64,000 nt of DNA from Arthrobacter liuii (GTDB lineage: Bacteria > Actinomycetota > Actinomycetes > Actinomycetales > Micrococcaceae). The notes under the pieces are model-generated. The model made no database searches. It was not told where the DNA came from and saw only the letters and a program-made list of their open reading frames with translations. Made by a program: the position numbers and the translations under genes. Positions 55,440 through 62,155 of the stretch are shown here, piece by piece (positions within the stretch are counted from its first letter, which is position 1; the number at the start of each line of letters is the position of its first letter). Location: positions 1 to 64,000 of the forward strand of contig NZ_BMFW01000019.1 of NCBI RefSeq assembly GCF_014639275.1, written 5' to 3'.

Positions 55440-56681
55440 TCATCCTGCGGACAATTGCCGTGCAGCCCAATCCCAGCCGATCAGCTCCTGCTCCAGGCGC
55501 ATGTTGCTGCCGTACTTATTGTTCCCGAGGGCCTCATACAGGGCTGCCTCTGCCGGCGTCAGACGCCCAAGCGGCGCCTTAGAAGGCGACGGCTCCCGTC
55601 CCCAGAGGTCCCGGTGCGCCAGGAGCGTCTCCTCATCCATCAGCACGCTCTCCACATGCGGATGGACAGACCGCAACTGGTCCAGGATCCGGAAGCCGTG
55701 GGTGTCAAGGTCGCCCCAGTACAGGACCCGGCAGCCACGCAGCCAGACCGCGTCGCGCAGCGACGAGAACCCATAGCCCGCGCCATAGAGAGCCAGCGCT
55801 CCGGGCCGCTCCGGCAGGGCCAGGAAGTTCACCTGGTTCTCGGTGGCGATCACCGTGTCCACGGGCAGCTGCAGCGAACTGAACGCGTCAGCGGTGACGG
55901 TGACGTCGCGCGCGCCGCCAAGCACTTCGTGAGCCGGGTCCAGCAGCCGGAACCGGACCAGCTCCGGCGGGTGGAGAAAGCCGTGCCGCATGGCGAAGCG
56001 GGAGGCAGGAGTGCGGCCCGCGCCGTCCTCCAGGGCGGCGTCAGTCCCGGGAGCTTCAGCTGCGGGATCAGGCACAGCCAGGTCGTTAGGCTCGGACGTG
56101 GCAGTAAGGGCCGCCAGCAGCTGGTCAACAACCTGCCGGTGCCGCTCGATGAACTTGGTGTGCACGCCCGGAAGGACCAGCTGCCGGACGTAGATCCCCG
56201 GCGCCGCATGGTCCCGCAGCCAAAGTGCCACCCTGGCGGCCGCCACAGCGTCAGGGCCCAGCTCGAGCAGCTTCAGCGGGCGGCGCCCAGCCCAGTTCAG
56301 CAGCAAGGGATCGAGTACCCCAAGATCCTCGGCCAGTCGGCGAAAGCTGGCGGCATCCCGGGTTTTGCCAAGGAACGAAACTTCGTCCTCAACAGAAACA
56401 AACACAGCCGCGGCCGGAATCCGGTTGGAACCAACTGTGCGGCGCCCAACCTCCATCATCTCCAGTTGATAATGGCCCACCCCGGAGGTCAGCTCTGCCG
56501 CCCAGGCACGGACCGCCGCATAATCGCCCAACAGCTCCGCCGCCGTCGGGCGTTTCAGGACCCGCCGCCGTGGATAGCTGCCCGAAGGAGAAAGCACCTC
56601 CCGCAGCAGTGCGCCGCTGTTCCACGCCTTCCGCGACTGGGCGCGCAACCCGGACAGGGTGGTCCAGGCCCTATCGGCCAT
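55440..56681 (-). CDS. jetD: Wadjet JetD (DUF3322/DUF2220, Toprim-like nuclease)
   Basis: 413-residue nuclease subunit of the Wadjet anti-plasmid complex. The C-terminal domain has the topoisomerase VI/Toprim-like TENQVNFLALPERPGALALY and LYWGDLDTHGFRILDQLRS, whose Glu and Asp pair (GDLDTHG) binds metal and cuts DNA; the N-terminal DUF3322 arm begins WTTLSGLRAQSRKAW. ATG 56681 overlaps JetC by 11 bp. Last gene of jetABCD. Cleaves small circular DNA held by the SMC-like loop extruder JetABC. Confidence 0.93.
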   Translation of the reverse strand: MADRAWTTLSGLRAQSRKAWNSGALLREVLSPSGSYPRRRVLKRPTAAELLGDYAAVRAWAAELTSGVGHYQLEMMEVGRRTVGSNRIPAAAVFVSVEDEVSFLGKTRDAASFRRLAEDLGVLDPLLLNWAGRRPLKLLELGPDAVAAARVALWLRDHAAPGIYVRQLVLPGVHTKFIERHRQVVDQLLAALTATSEPNDLAVPDPAAEAPGTDAALEDGAGRTPASRFAMRHGFLHPPELVRFRLLDPAHEVLGGARDVTVTADAFSSLQLPVDTVIATENQVNFLALPERPGALALYGAGYGFSSLRDAVWLRGCRVLYWGDLDTHGFRILDQLRSVHPHVESVLMDEETLLAHRDLWGREPSPSKAPLGRLTPAEAALYEALGNNKYGSNMRLEQELIGWDWAARQLSAG

Positions 56682-59600
56682 GCCGGTCCTTCTCTTCGCG
56701 ATACTCCTGGATGGTCATGTTGCGCAGCTGTGAATCGTCGCCGTTGGTGTTGGCCACGAAACCCACGTGGGAGACGAACGGCTCGATGACGTGGATTTTC
56801 TGCAGGGGAGTGACGATCAGCAGCTGCAGTTTCATGCGCTGGAAGAGCTCCAGCCCGTACCGTGCCGACTCGTCCGAGCCGCGGCCGAACGCCTCGTCAA
56901 TCACCACGAACCGGAAGCTCCGCCCACTTCCTGCGTTGCGGCCAGCACCCTTGCCGGAGCCCAGCCCGAACTGGAACGCCAATGCCGCCGCGAGGATGGT
57001 GTAGGCCAGCTTCTCCTTCTGGCCCCCGGATTTACCGCCGGAATCGGTGAAGTGCTCGTACTCCTCGCCGTTTTCCGTCCACTTCTCGGAGGCTGAAAAC
57101 GTGAACCAGTTCCGCACATCCGTGACCTTCGAAGTCCATCTCCGGTCCAGCTCGGTCAGGCCGTCCCGGCCCCGGAACCGTTCGATCAGCCGCTCCACCT
57201 GCAGGTACTTCTGCTCCGAGTATTGGTCTTCGTCACCGATGGTCCCCTCCGAGCATGCGCGCAGGTCGCTGCCGAACTCGCGCACATCCTGGTCCGAGGC
57301 TGACTGGTGCTCCAGCTGGATGTGGCGCCCCGTGTTGTAGGGGATCCCCGCCAGCGACTGGTTGATCTCGCCGATCCGGTTGATGATGTCCTGCCGCCGG
57401 CTGTCCAGGAACGCGTTGAAGGCCACTACCTCGTGGATGGTGTTCTGGTTCAGCGACTCCTTGAACCGGGCCTCGAACCGCGGAAGGTCATTGCTGACAA
57501 GTTGCTCGAGCAGGCGGTTGTAGTCCGGCGCTGCGTCCAACGCCGCATCGAAGTCGGTGGTCTCGTTCGGGTATTTGTTGCGGAAGTCCGCCATCTGGCG
57601 GACGGTGCCCTCCGCTGCGCGCGCGATGCGCTTGGCCAGGGCATCGATGGCGTCCGTCAGGCCTGACCGCACCGTACTTTCCACGGTCCCGGTGTTCTTG
57701 TGGGTCAGGGGCTTTTCGCCCAGGGCCTGGCTGGTGAGGCGTTCGACGGCGGCGAGCACTTCGCCGTCGTCGGTCACCGGTGTTTCGGCCAGGACAGTCC
57801 GGCACTCCGCGATTGCGTCGGCTATGTCCCGGGCGTCCTTGTCGTTGGCACCCAGCCGCTGCTGCAGCTTGCCCGCCTTGTCTTCCGCGCGGTCCAGCTC
57901 TGCTGTCACCTGGGACTGCTTGGCCATGAGCTGCCGCAGGATGTCGCTGGTGGACTCGAGCTCCCCCTTCTCCGCCTTCAGGTCCTCGATTCTGCGCGCG
58001 GTGAGCTGCCAGCTGACCTCGCTGAAGTCCCGCACCGAGGCGATGGTGCCGAGTTGCCGGTTCTGCCGGCCGATCAGGCCCAGCCGGTCGGTCACCTTGC
58101 CGAGCTCCGTGGCCGCCACCTTCAATCGGCCCTGGACCTCATCCTGCGCGGCCCGGAAGCGGGCAATCTTGTCGTGGTTGTCCCACCCCAGGACGTAGCT
58201 GCGCCGGTCGGCCAGGTCCTTCCGGTCGTCCTTTTCGTGCCGGCCGCGGGCACCTTTGAGCTGCCCGTTCACCGTGAGTGCCTTGGGATGGCGGCGGAAA
58301 TCAGCCAGGTCCTCGCAGCAGAAGTAGTCGAACCGGCTGCTGAGTTCGTCCTGCAGGAAATCCCGGAACGGCGTGCCCTGCTTGATGGCGATCTTGGCTG
58401 CGAGTGTCCCGGGCTCCAGCGTCTTGGGTGAGTACGAGTCCGCTACCCGCAGGTACACCAGCCTGCCGCGCAGGTTGTTGGCGTCCACCCAACTGCTTAC
58501 CGCGGGGTAATGCCCAGCGGGCACCATGAGGGACAACGCGAATCCACGCAATGTCCGTTCCGCGGCGCCCTCCCAGGCGCCCTCGCCCTCGCGGACCCGC
58601 AGCAGCTCGCCAACGTACGGCAGTTCGGTGTCCTTGATCCCCGTTCCTTCACAAAGCCGGCGGCGGATTTCCAGCTGGGGGAGGGGGATCAAATTGCGCC
58701 GGGCCTGCAGGCTGGTCAGTTCGGCGGCGATGTCGGCTGCCTTCCCCTGGAGCTCGGCTTGCTGCATGGACAGCCCGGTAATGCCGGTTTGTAGTTCGCC
58801 CGCCTGGCGGCCCAGGTCCTGTTCCACGCCGGCCAGCCGTGCACGGTTCGCATCGAACAGCACGCGGTCATCCGGAGTGTGCAACCCGAGATCCCTGGCG
58901 GCGGAGGCGTACGTCTCGAACCGCTGCCGCTGGGCTGCGGATTCGTCGGCGAGCCGTGAGAGGTCCGCGTCGATCGCTGCGAGCCGCCCTCCGCCATTGG
59001 TACGGATGTCCTCCTCCACCCCGTAAAGATCCCGGCGCAGCTGTGCCACCTCGGCCTTGAGCCGGGTGCTGTCCTCCACCAGACGGTTGCCGGTCCGCTC
59101 CAGCTCGGCTTGGTGCTCCAGGCTCAGCTGCAGCTTCCGGTGGGTGAACCAGGGGTGCAGCTGGTCCCGCTGCCGGCGTGCGAAGTGGTCCTCACCCGAA
59201 AGCTTTGCGTGCTGGGCGGCACCGTCCCTGATTGGCGTCAACAGTCCGATCTGGTCCTTGGCGCGGAGGACGGCGTCGTGGGCTTTCTTCAGGTCGTCGA
59301 AGTGGTGGATCAGGTTGGTGATCCGGGTGGCAACGTCGTCCTCTTCCAGCATGTTGCTGCGCACGAACGAGGTGATGTTTTCCACCTGCTTCATGGACAC
59401 GGTCCGGTGGAAGAGCTCCATGGCCTGGTTCCCGCTGATGCCGAAGTGGCGCTTGAACGCGGCCGCGTACGGCTCAAAGGAATCATGAACAGAAACACCG
59501 GCGCCGCGGAGTTTCTTCTTGAGCTTCAGGGGATCCTGCCCAAAGTTGGAGAAGTCCGCCGCGATGGACTGGTCCGTTTCCGCCAGAGTGTAGAAGCGGA

Positions 59601-60078
59601 CAGGCTGACCTGCCTCCTGGGTTGCCCACAACGTGATGCCGAGCGTGATCCATTTGCCCAGCACCGCGTTGTGGAAGACGCCCAGCACCACTGTCAGCTG
59701 GCCCGTCCCGCGCAGCGCCACGGGTTTGGAGTATTCTCCGCCGGTGCTCCGGGCGCTCTTGTGGTAGCCGCGGACGTATGACATCAGGGAGCGCTCTTTC
59801 TTCTGCGCTCCCGCCGCCTTGTTGTAGTCGATCTTGTGCGCGGGCAGCAACAGGGTGGTGATGGCATCCACCACGGTGGATTTGCCGGAGCCGATGTCTC
59901 CGGTCAGCAGGCTGTTGGCCCCGTCCAGCCGGAACGTGCGCACGCCCTGGTGGAATGTGCCCCAGTTGAGCAGCTCCAGGCGGTGCAGCCGGAAGCCCGG
60001 GGGAGTGCCGGCGTCGTCCGCCGTTTCATCCAGGCTGAACAGGCTCTCCTGCAGGTCCGTGGTGATTTCCGCCGTCAC
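56671..60078 (-). CDS. jetC: Wadjet JetC (SMC-like ATPase)
   Basis: 1135-residue SMC/MukB-like ATPase. Walker A is GDIGSGKST at residues 60-68 after NWGTFHQGVRTFRLDGANSL; long coiled coils run from about residues 290-450 and 640-860; the C-terminal SGGQKEKLAYTILAAALAFQ signature and VVIDEAFGRGSDESA Walker B lie near residues 1030-1090. GTG start overlapping jetB (GTGA). Extrudes DNA loops and senses plasmid size. JetC is the main motor of the complex; all active-site motifs are intact here. Confidence 0.95.
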   Translation of the reverse strand: MTAEITTDLQESLFSLDETADDAGTPPGFRLHRLELLNWGTFHQGVRTFRLDGANSLLTGDIGSGKSTVVDAITTLLLPAHKIDYNKAAGAQKKERSLMSYVRGYHKSARSTGGEYSKPVALRGTGQLTVVLGVFHNAVLGKWITLGITLWATQEAGQPVRFYTLAETDQSIAADFSNFGQDPLKLKKKLRGAGVSVHDSFEPYAAAFKRHFGISGNQAMELFHRTVSMKQVENITSFVRSNMLEEDDVATRITNLIHHFDDLKKAHDAVLRAKDQIGLLTPIRDGAAQHAKLSGEDHFARRQRDQLHPWFTHRKLQLSLEHQAELERTGNRLVEDSTRLKAEVAQLRRDLYGVEEDIRTNGGGRLAAIDADLSRLADESAAQRQRFETYASAARDLGLHTPDDRVLFDANRARLAGVEQDLGRQAGELQTGITGLSMQQAELQGKAADIAAELTSLQARRNLIPLPQLEIRRRLCEGTGIKDTELPYVGELLRVREGEGAWEGAAERTLRGFALSLMVPAGHYPAVSSWVDANNLRGRLVYLRVADSYSPKTLEPGTLAAKIAIKQGTPFRDFLQDELSSRFDYFCCEDLADFRRHPKALTVNGQLKGARGRHEKDDRKDLADRRSYVLGWDNHDKIARFRAAQDEVQGRLKVAATELGKVTDRLGLIGRQNRQLGTIASVRDFSEVSWQLTARRIEDLKAEKGELESTSDILRQLMAKQSQVTAELDRAEDKAGKLQQRLGANDKDARDIADAIAECRTVLAETPVTDDGEVLAAVERLTSQALGEKPLTHKNTGTVESTVRSGLTDAIDALAKRIARAAEGTVRQMADFRNKYPNETTDFDAALDAAPDYNRLLEQLVSNDLPRFEARFKESLNQNTIHEVVAFNAFLDSRRQDIINRIGEINQSLAGIPYNTGRHIQLEHQSASDQDVREFGSDLRACSEGTIGDEDQYSEQKYLQVERLIERFRGRDGLTELDRRWTSKVTDVRNWFTFSASEKWTENGEEYEHFTDSGGKSGGQKEKLAYTILAAALAFQFGLGSGKGAGRNAGSGRSFRFVVIDEAFGRGSDESARYGLELFQRMKLQLLIVTPLQKIHVIEPFVSHVGFVANTNGDDSQLRNMTIQEYREEKDRHGR

Positions 60079-60716
60079 TTGCCCTCCTCCGCTCCGGTAC
60101 GGTCCGCGCCTCCGGCCAGCGGCTCCCCGGCGAGCGTCGCACGGTAGTCAGCCAGCCGCGCGTCGAACTCCTCCAGCCATTGCGCATCCACGTAGGCCTT
60201 CAGGATGCGCGCCACCTCGTACGTGTCAGCCTGCCCCTTCAGTTTCCGCAGGAAGCCAAGCTCCACCACTTTCCTGATGTCAGCCCGGAGGCGGTCCAGG
60301 GTCCTGGCCTCGTTGCTGGAATCCGGCCGGAACAGCGAGACCATGTCCTCGATATCCTGCTCCGTCATGATGAGCCGGACTTCGCTGCTGTTGATGTCGA
60401 ACTCCATCATGCGGCGGCGGAGCAGGGCCAGCAGCAGGCTGACGTTAAAGGTGAGCGAGCGGCGGGCGATGAGCCGGGGGAGCGCCAGGTCCGGATCCTC
60501 CCGTGAGCGCAGGAAAGCGTAGCCTTCGGACTCGTCGAGGATCAGCTCCAGGCCCAGGACGGCAACGTAGTCGCGGACGTGCGATGTCAGGCCCAGCAGG
60601 GACTGCCATACTTTCTCGTCGTTCTCCGCGTAGAGCACGCCCTTGAAAAGCCGGGTGACGACGGCGGGAAGTTCCTCGGGCGTGTGGGTTTCCGTTTGGT
60701 TGGTGGCGGGATTCAT
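60075..60716 (-). CDS. jetB: Wadjet JetB (DUF4194, kleisin-partner KITE-like)
   Basis: 213-residue DUF4194 protein, the MukE-like subunit that links JetA to JetC. LPAVVTRLFKGVLYAENDEK, VLGLELILDESEGYAFLRSR and DIEDMVSLFRPDSSNEARTL are typical. ATG 60716 and both ends overlap neighbours by 4 bp. Confidence 0.92.
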   Translation of the reverse strand: MNPATNQTETHTPEELPAVVTRLFKGVLYAENDEKVWQSLLGLTSHVRDYVAVLGLELILDESEGYAFLRSREDPDLALPRLIARRSLTFNVSLLLALLRRRMMEFDINSSEVRLIMTEQDIEDMVSLFRPDSSNEARTLDRLRADIRKVVELGFLRKLKGQADTYEVARILKAYVDAQWLEEFDARLADYRATLAGEPLAGGADRTGAEEGK

Positions 60717-62155
60717 GCCGGCCTTCCGAAGATGATCTGCTCGATGGCGGCTTCACGGATGGTGCCGTCCGGCAGTCGCCACGACAGGTGCTGGGACTGT
60801 CCGGGGTTGATGGTGGCCCAGTCCGACTCGGTGGCCAGCTGGTAGTAGGCCACCACCTCGGCGAGTCCCTGGGAAAGCGGGTAGGCCAGGGTGATCTCTG
60901 CGAGGGTGGCCTGGTCCGCCTCGGCCAGGACGGCGTCGATATTTGCCTTGAGCCGTTCCTTGTCCACGAAGAACTGGTTGAACAGGGCGGCGGCGTCCAC
61001 GTCAGCGTCATCGGCTGTTTTGATGGTGTCGTCCACCAGCACCTTGCGGCTGGGCTCATACAGCGGCCGCTCAAACGGCAGCACCACGTCCACCGACGGC
61101 GCGTCGATTTCCAAAAAGGCGCCCGACGGCGGCGCCTCCCGGGTGCCCAGCGCACCGGATTCGATGCTGCGGATCAGCTGCATGATCCGTTTGTTCTCCA
61201 GGAACACCTTGTCATCCAGGAGCCGGCGCATCTGCTGGGACAGCTGCCGGACGGTGGCCTGCGTCTGCTCGACGGCGGGCAGCCAGTCCTGGTGCAGGTT
61301 GGCCACAGCGTGCAGGCCGTCGGCCCGGGCGAGGGCCTCGATCCGGGTGGCTCGTTGCAGCAGGTCCTGCAGTTCGGTGCGCAGCTGTGGGGACATGAGG
61401 TAGTCCCAGAAGCCCTGGAAGGTGCGGCCCTGGAGGGAGCTGCTGATGTCCTGCTGGTTGTCGAAGATCGACTGCAGCAGTTCGCCCTGGGTCCCGTCCC
61501 AGGTGGCGATCTGTTCGCGCACCTGCCGGTCGAGCCTGCGGAAGTTCTGCTCCACCTCACGGAAATCGGCCAGCAAATCCTTGGCCAGGGCAGTGAGTTG
61601 CTGGAGGTGGTCCAGGGCTTCGGGGCCGGTCATGACGCGGATGTTGCCGTCGCGGATCCGCTGCATCTCGGCGTCGATCCCGTCCCGCTGGCGCTGCAGC
61701 TCGGCGAGCCGGACCTCGGGGTCCGTCTCCGACTGCTGGACGAGCTGCTTGAGGACAGCGAAGATGCTGGTGAGCCGGGACTGGGTGGCGACGAAGTCCC
61801 TGCCGCGGAGGCTCTCCACCCAGCGGACCACGTCCTCTGCTGCCGCCGTGAGGTCGTAGTGCGGCTCGTCCTCTCCTTGCGGGTAGTACTTGCGCAGCCA
61901 CTTCCTTTCGTCGGCGGCCCAGTCGTCCAGGTACTCGCCGGCGGGGCGCGGGAACCGGTTTTCCCCTTCGCTGTCCCGCAGGCCAAAGAGCACGTCGTCG
62001 AGGACGTCGATCAGCTCCTGCCGGCCGAGGTTGCGCTGGTTTGGTCCCGTGAACGCAGCCATGAAGAAAGCCAGTGCCAGCGGAGCGTTCTGGGCGCGGA
62101 GGAGCGACCAACCTGCGTGGTTTTCGCGCAGGGAATTAATGGCGTAGAAGTCCAT
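60713..62155 (-). CDS. jetA: Wadjet JetA (DUF3375, kleisin-like)
   Basis: 480-residue DUF3375 protein, the MukF/kleisin-like bridge of the Wadjet motor. Starts MDFYAINSLRENHAGWSLLR, with an early winged-helix, a coiled-coil middle (about residues 160-260) and a C-terminal part ending AIEQIIFGRPA. ATG 62155; a longer frame to 62305 lacks support. First gene of the four, so the promoter lies in 62156-62566. Confidence 0.93.
   Translation of the reverse strand: MDFYAINSLRENHAGWSLLRAQNAPLALAFFMAAFTGPNQRNLGRQELIDVLDDVLFGLRDSEGENRFPRPAGEYLDDWAADERKWLRKYYPQGEDEPHYDLTAAAEDVVRWVESLRGRDFVATQSRLTSIFAVLKQLVQQSETDPEVRLAELQRQRDGIDAEMQRIRDGNIRVMTGPEALDHLQQLTALAKDLLADFREVEQNFRRLDRQVREQIATWDGTQGELLQSIFDNQQDISSSLQGRTFQGFWDYLMSPQLRTELQDLLQRATRIEALARADGLHAVANLHQDWLPAVEQTQATVRQLSQQMRRLLDDKVFLENKRIMQLIRSIESGALGTREAPPSGAFLEIDAPSVDVVLPFERPLYEPSRKVLVDDTIKTADDADVDAAALFNQFFVDKERLKANIDAVLAEADQATLAEITLAYPLSQGLAEVVAYYQLATESDWATINPGQSQHLSWRLPDGTIREAAIEQIIFGRPA

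What the first reader, a model, noticed from the sequence alone, without database searches (positions are those of the whole stretch)
55440..62155. Complete Wadjet (JetABCD) anti-plasmid system
Seen: four genes with 4-11 bp overlaps; JetC Walker A and signature and the JetD GDLDTHG metal motif are intact. Known: the complex extrudes and cuts small circular DNA. In this catabolic region it may be the factor that limits plasmid entry in this strain. There is no neighbouring second defence gene, and the spacing to the lipase shows it is a self-contained unit.
Basis: established knowledge. Interest (0 to 1): 0.6.

Follow-up and report, generated by a model that had tools for sequence, protein, structure and literature searches.

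The report
Complete type I Wadjet anti-plasmid operon
Four genes in this soil bacterium form an ordinary, intact Wadjet machine that very probably reels in and cuts small circular plasmids; the less expected part is that the same genome also carries a related machine without the cutting subunit.

Summary
Four minus-strand genes (62155-55440), overlapping by 4, 4 and 11 bp, encode JetA, JetB, JetC and JetD, all type I by PADLOC profiles. Motifs are intact and conserved, and all four genes show dN/dS of 0.06-0.24 against six relatives. It is an ordinary type I Wadjet (MksBEFG/EptABCD).

The interpretation needs correcting. The cassette is accessory: JetC of this kind is in 49 of 150 genomes of the genus, split into two frames in three of them. 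Its neighbours change. The strain also has an HsdR-type restriction gene and a second JetABC set (JetC 27% identical) without a JetD. That JetC is in 149 of 150 genomes, any JetD in 66 of 150. So this operon holds the only JetD detected in the draft genome, but it is not shown to be "the" limit to plasmid entry.

In relatives jetD has been exchanged between jetABC backbones: JetA, JetB and JetC share a clade that JetD rejects. In seven genomes pieces of a second jetD lie downstream on the same strand. Anti-plasmid activity is inferred, not tested.

The parts
60713..62155 (-). jetA (kleisin, DUF3375), 480 aa, ATG start
   Evidence: Pfam PF11855 E 1e-134; PADLOC JetA1 4e-196 over residues 1-478; solved JetA 8dk1 E 2e-22
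60075..60716 (-). jetB (KITE subunit, DUF4194/MksE-like), 213 aa; overlaps jetA by 4 bp
   Evidence: Pfam PF13835 E 2e-41, PF21980 MksE 3e-18; PADLOC JetB1 2e-90; no solved chain matched at E 0.001
56671..60078 (-). jetC (SMC/MukB-like ATPase), 1135 aa, GTG start; overlaps jetB by 4 bp
   Evidence: PADLOC JetC1 E 0; solved JetC 8dk2 E 1e-60 and 8as8 2e-52; Walker A, signature and Walker B invariant in 38 aligned rows
55440..56681 (-). jetD (CAP + Toprim nuclease), 413 aa; overlaps jetC by 11 bp
   Evidence: Pfam PF09983 JetD_C 4e-54 and PF11795 1e-44; PADLOC JetD1 3e-134; nearest solved chain C. glutamicum MksG 8b7f 2e-24; catalytic residues conserved

Best explanation
The operon encodes a complete type I Wadjet (JetABCD = MksFEBG = EptABCD). 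By the published mechanism, a JetA-JetB-JetC dimer of SMC motors loads on DNA and extrudes loops; on a small circle the two motors meet after extruding the whole molecule, which releases the JetD nuclease to make a double-strand cut, so that circular plasmids below roughly 50-100 kb are destroyed while the chromosome, linear DNA and large plasmids escape. Shown here: the genes, their order and overlaps, family membership, intact ATPase and Toprim residues, purifying selection, accessory and variable distribution. Inferred from relatives: extrusion, cutting, substrate size limit and activity in this strain.
For: Family profiles and solved relatives for JetA, JetC and JetD, profiles for JetB. 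Conserved catalytic residues, including those tested by mutation in C. glutamicum MksG: Glu and Asp of the Toprim and Tyr258, which match E281, D324 and Y303 here by motif (PMC10123090 section 27 read). dN/dS 0.06-0.24 for all four genes against six relatives. Gene order A-B-C-D kept in related loci while flanks change. Only JetD_C and only DUF3322 match in the genome. Mechanism from PMC10586767 (section 4 part 1 read).
Against: No functional data for this operon or for any close relative. Expression was not assessed. JetB has no match among solved chains. The contig-number test showed no significant difference (8 of 23 against 17 of 37, p 0.43). Some relatives carry broken copies (jetC split in 3 of 49 genomes; L081 in many pieces, L064 jetD interrupted), so the system can be lost or is hit by sequencing errors.
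Confidence: 0.9

Rival explanations
1. The operon acts mainly as a chromosome condensin (MksBEF-like), with plasmid restriction a side effect or absent.
For: MksBEF of P. [quoted passage not shown] The genus keeps a JetD-less JetABC in 149 of 150 genomes, so such machines can become resident.
Against: JetD is present with intact active-site residues and low dN/dS. JetC of this kind is missing from 101 of 150 genomes, unlike a housekeeping condensin. ScpA is present in the genome and the JetD-less set is the better candidate for chromosome work.
Confidence: 0.06
2. The cassette is a decaying or silent relic in this strain.
For: Several relatives carry broken copies. The window JetC is much further from its relatives (84%) than the host's other JetC is (96.5%), so it may be a recent arrival.
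Against: All four frames are open with translational overlaps. Catalytic residues and dN/dS are those of working genes.
Confidence: 0.04

Closest known systems
Type I Wadjet JetABCD (solved chains 8dk2, 8as8, 7til, 8q72)
   Same: All four subunits, same gene order A-B-C-D, type I profiles for each, ATPase and Toprim motifs
   Different: Only moderate sequence similarity to the solved complexes (e.g. JetC 8dk2 209 bits over 1095 residues); a long, variable region of JetD at about residues 181-220 (conservation 0.3-0.4)
Corynebacterium glutamicum MksBEFG
   Same: JetD's best solved match is MksG; the Tyr reported as conserved in actinobacterial MksG (Y258) is present (Y303) and invariant in 49 of 49 rows
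   Different: C. glutamicum has Smc-ScpAB plus MksBEFG (PMC10123090 section 26). This genome has ScpA plus two Mks/Jet sets, one with and one without nuclease. DivIVA-dependent polar localisation was not testable
Paenarthrobacter lasiusi S21 (PMC11719660, Table 6, passages seen)
   Same: Its table lists two Wadjet loci: one with JetA, JetB, JetC only and one type I with JetA1-JetD1, the same pattern as here
   Different: Reported as a line in a defence table; the passages seen give no genus-wide survey and no comment on the missing JetD
P. aeruginosa MksBEF (JetD-less condensin)
   Same: Precedent for a JetABC-like complex without nuclease in the same cell as other SMC complexes (PMC10586767, passages)
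   Different: Compares with the second locus of this genome (G000:C7), not with the window operon

Membership tests
Type I Wadjet (JetABCD) | JetA kleisin with DUF3375 | tested here: met
   PF11855 450 bits; PADLOC JetA1 650 bits
Type I Wadjet (JetABCD) | JetB KITE subunit with DUF4194 | tested here: met
   PF13835 142 bits; PADLOC JetB1 300 bits
Type I Wadjet (JetABCD) | JetC SMC-like ATPase with Walker A, signature and Walker B | tested here: met
   PADLOC JetC1 1403 bits; motifs at 60-68, 1017-1023, from 1057, invariant in 38 rows
Type I Wadjet (JetABCD) | JetD with N-terminal DUF3322/CAP part and C-terminal Toprim with acidic metal site | tested here: met
   PF11795 and PF09983; E281, D324, D326 invariant in 49 of 49 rows
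Type I Wadjet (JetABCD) | Operon order A-B-C-D, all four genes adjacent | tested here: met
   Overlaps of 4, 4 and 11 bp on one strand
Type I Wadjet (JetABCD) | Type I rather than II or III | tested here: met
   Best PADLOC models are JetA1, JetB1, JetC1, JetD1; JetD3 models only at E 0.002-0.007
Type I Wadjet (JetABCD) | Restriction of small circular DNA needing all four genes | not testable with these tools
   Needs transformation assays or purified complex
MksBEF (JetD-less condensin) | JetABC homologues with no JetD/MksG | tested here: not met
   The window operon has JetD. The feature is met by the other locus, G000:C7

The most novel reading that the evidence does not exclude
The Arthrobacter-Pseudarthrobacter group carries two descendants of the Wadjet machine: a nearly universal JetABC motor with intact ATPase but no nuclease, turned to a resident (probably chromosomal) role, and an accessory JetABCD that turns over in the genome and whose nuclease jetD is swapped between jetABC backbones by recombination, leaving broken jetD pieces downstream. 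The window holds one such accessory cassette; a swap is shown in relatives, not in the window copy itself.
Probability: 0.5. Interest if true: 0.55.

Novelty: new member of a known kind. Interest (0 to 1): 0.32.

Why it matters
As a Wadjet the operon is one more member of a system reported in 42% of actinobacterial genomes (PMC10482375, passages). It is a practical explanation for poor plasmid uptake in a soil genus of biotechnological use, and a target for making strains transformable. The comparison adds two testable points: a nuclease-free relative is close to universal in the genus, offering a system in which to ask what separates a plasmid-cutting SMC complex from a resident one; and jetD appears exchangeable between backbones, which would mean that the motor-nuclease interface tolerates swaps of JetDs only about 60-75% identical.

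Tried and rejected
Rejected: a chance or fragmentary system. Rejected: that the second JetC match in the genome is another complete Wadjet; no JetD lies in the 7 kb beyond it that were read, where the next gene found is a convergent FBP_C gene, and no other JetD_C or DUF3322 match exists in the genome.

Tried without result: a solved-structure match for JetB (none at E 0.001); a second jetD or jetC piece in the window by sensitive profile search (apart from the operon nothing below E 2); a link between JetD and contig number in complete-looking genomes (8 of 23 against 17 of 37, p 0.43; contig number is a poor stand-in for plasmids and large plasmids are expected to escape); Mrr-type restriction in the genome (none). 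The comparison of the accessory JetC with the JetD-less JetC as a host marker over 28 genomes gave mixed numbers: Pearson 0.37 (0 of 2000 permutations as high) but Spearman 0.10; I read it as partly shared history with much exchange.

The trees are quick searches without bootstraps, the JetC tree warns of long branches, and the clades tested were chosen after seeing the trees, so their p-values are too small. From, 11 of 49 rows were dropped for lacking four full-length genes. Duplicate records of one genome (L038/L060, L039/L049) are in the sets. One downstream jetD piece (L084) rests on 23 matched positions (E 7e-8). PADLOC was run on 20 selected neighbours, not on every ORF. Structure prediction was not used; sequence matches were decisive.

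Full report
Check of the observation. The four genes lie on the minus strand at 62155-60713, 60716-60075, 60078-56671 and 56681-55440 and overlap by 4, 4 and 11 bp. Pfam finds DUF3375, DUF4194/MksE, an SbcC-type P-loop plus Walker B, and DUF3322 plus JetD_C. PADLOC gives JetA1, JetB1, JetC1 and JetD1 as best models. Solved relatives are JetC 8dk2/8as8, JetD as C. glutamicum MksG 8b7f and JetD 7til/8q72 and JetA 8dk1. JetB has no solved match at E 0.001.

State of the genes. JetC's Walker A, signature and Walker B are invariant in 38 aligned rows. In 49 JetD rows (47 distinct), the Toprim Glu, the two Asp of GDLDTHG, the Tyr that matches MksG Y258 by position in the motif, and an Arg and a Lys of the N-terminal part that I take to be those named in the MksG paper are invariant; two C-terminal Glu are present in 48 of 49, the exception being the truncated second jetD of L063. 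The assignment of these residues to MksG numbering is mine, from the motif and the alignment, against PMC10123090 section 27. dN/dS against six relatives is 0.06-0.24 for all four genes. The operon therefore looks functional.

Setting. 'Genus' here is the unnamed group of the genome search; the named relatives are Arthrobacter, Pseudarthrobacter and Paenarthrobacter, with one Streptomyces locus at 40%. JetC of the window kind is found in 49 of 150 genomes: 46 with one near-full-length frame, own genome included, and 3 split in two frames; two more genomes have fragments. Neighbours vary: of 50 related loci, none has the lipase within 1.5 kb upstream of jetA or the hydrolase within 1.5 kb downstream of jetD as in the window, though 11 carry the lipase and 16 the hydrolase somewhere on the locus, 9 with the hydrolase within 2 kb upstream of jetA. 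So the cassette recurs near similar genes, in changing arrangements. The host's JetD-less JetC is 96.5% identical to that of its nearest sampled relative (G016), but the window JetC reaches only 84% with any, which argues against simple vertical descent from their common ancestor. Over 28 genomes the two distance sets correlate weakly (Pearson 0.37, 0 of 2000 permutations as high; Spearman 0.10).

A second set without nuclease. The genome holds one other JetC match, 27% identical, at G000:C7. It follows JetA-like and JetB-like genes, all best matched by type I PADLOC models, but the next gene is a convergent FBP_C gene and the only JetD_C and DUF3322 matches in the genome are those of the window. 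This JetC is in 149 of 150 genomes of the genus at E 1e-100 or better, and in 141 of 141 of those at least 90% complete and at most 5% contaminated, while JetD_C occurs in 66 of 150, so at least 83 genomes have it with no JetD_C match at all. In 21 loci read with more than 2 kb beyond jetC no JetD was found. Its Walker A, signature and Walker B are present in 28 of 28 rows. ScpA occurs once in the genome. In the order, a JetD profile found a JetD beside JetC in 11 of 33 loci, in none of the 11 loci of this clade and none of 11 loci of family f11, with 1.5 kb flanks; genome-wide, 12 of 23 of the genomes searched have a JetD_C, and G246 plus ten of the eleven f11 genomes do not. On the JetC tree the two JetD-less groups are separate and the state changes twice, with long-branch warnings and no root. 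The most likely reading is a motor that lost its nuclease and took a resident role, as proposed for P. aeruginosa MksBEF (PMC10586767, passages); this is inference. The pattern is already visible in one printed table (PMC11719660, Table 6, passages seen). My searches for print on JetD-less sets and on jetD exchange were made; I saw only listings for most hits, so I claim no priority.

Exchange of jetD. Among 38 rows with four full-length genes, of 49, pairwise distances of A, B and C agree (r 0.70-0.87), and D agrees less (0.48-0.66). A clade of 12 that holds the window is recovered by JetC (100), JetA (99.8) and JetB (97.2), while JetD rejects it (difference in log-likelihood 192, AU p 1e-46); the JetD clade of 12 is rejected by JetC (p 3e-4), JetA (5e-9) and JetB (4e-7). 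The clades were picked after the trees were seen. For example L035, L052 and L076 share a JetC clade with L034, L036, L037 and L050 but have JetDs that group with L051, L065, L083 and L086. In seven genomes a piece of a second jetD lies 1-9 kb downstream of the cassette on the same strand: G002, G031, G105, G109, G110 (three of them also, G110 as L078) and the records L081 and L084 (L084 weak). In G031 the piece is preceded by the last part of a second jetC. None was seen upstream in these sets. Against a neat picture: L040 and L075 have weak downstream matches to other jet genes (46% and 45%), G081 has two whole cassettes about 20 kb apart, G095 a second JetD 53 kb away, and the genes between cassette and piece in G031 look like ordinary chromosomal nucleoside-use genes by eye (no profile search). 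I infer that cassettes are replaced step by step, with jetD the part most often changed. The window shows no such piece.

Mechanism. For the window operon I adopt the published total-extrusion model (PMC10586767 section 4 part 1): two JetABC motors extrude the whole of a small circle, collide and release JetD. Extrusion and cutting are not shown here.

Verdict. The finding is correct as an annotation and ordinary in kind. The claim that it is the factor that limits plasmid entry is open: an HsdR_N gene is also present and other defences were not surveyed. The interest lies in the company it keeps.

Noticed in passing
L032:7050-12833 (G000:C7, outside the window): A second JetA-JetB-JetC set without JetD in the same genome; its JetC is in 149 of 150 genomes of the genus, with ATPase motifs present in 28 of 28 rows checked.
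   Followed up: partly
38 related loci with four full-length jet genes (L034-L086 sets): JetD tree conflicts with JetA, JetB and JetC trees, which agree with each other: jetD seems to be exchanged between cassettes.
   Followed up: partly
L152:15230-16786, L153:15543-15944, L078:18392-19258, L081:15584-15964, L084:12410-12544; also G002:C12:91755-91907 and G105:C23:41360-41479: Pieces of a second jetD (in L152 with the end of a second jetC) 1-9 kb downstream of an intact or, in L081, broken cassette, same strand.
   Followed up: partly
Family f11 of the order, e.g. L102, L103, L105, L107-L112, L118, L121: A second, separate group of JetABC sets without a neighbouring JetD; ten of eleven of these genomes have no JetD_C match at all.
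   Followed up: partly
L038 and L039 (G081:C5, named record Arthrobacter sp. ISL-72): Two complete JetABCD cassettes of the same kind about 20 kb apart in one genome (JetC 84% and 79% to the window).
   Followed up: no
G000:C44:7767-8384: HsdR_N match in a 1083-aa frame, so a type I restriction gene is another possible barrier to plasmids in this strain; its partners were not checked.
   Followed up: no
window JetD residues about 181-220: A poorly conserved stretch (0.3-0.4 against 0.6-0.9 elsewhere) between the N-terminal part and the Toprim part of JetD.
   Followed up: no
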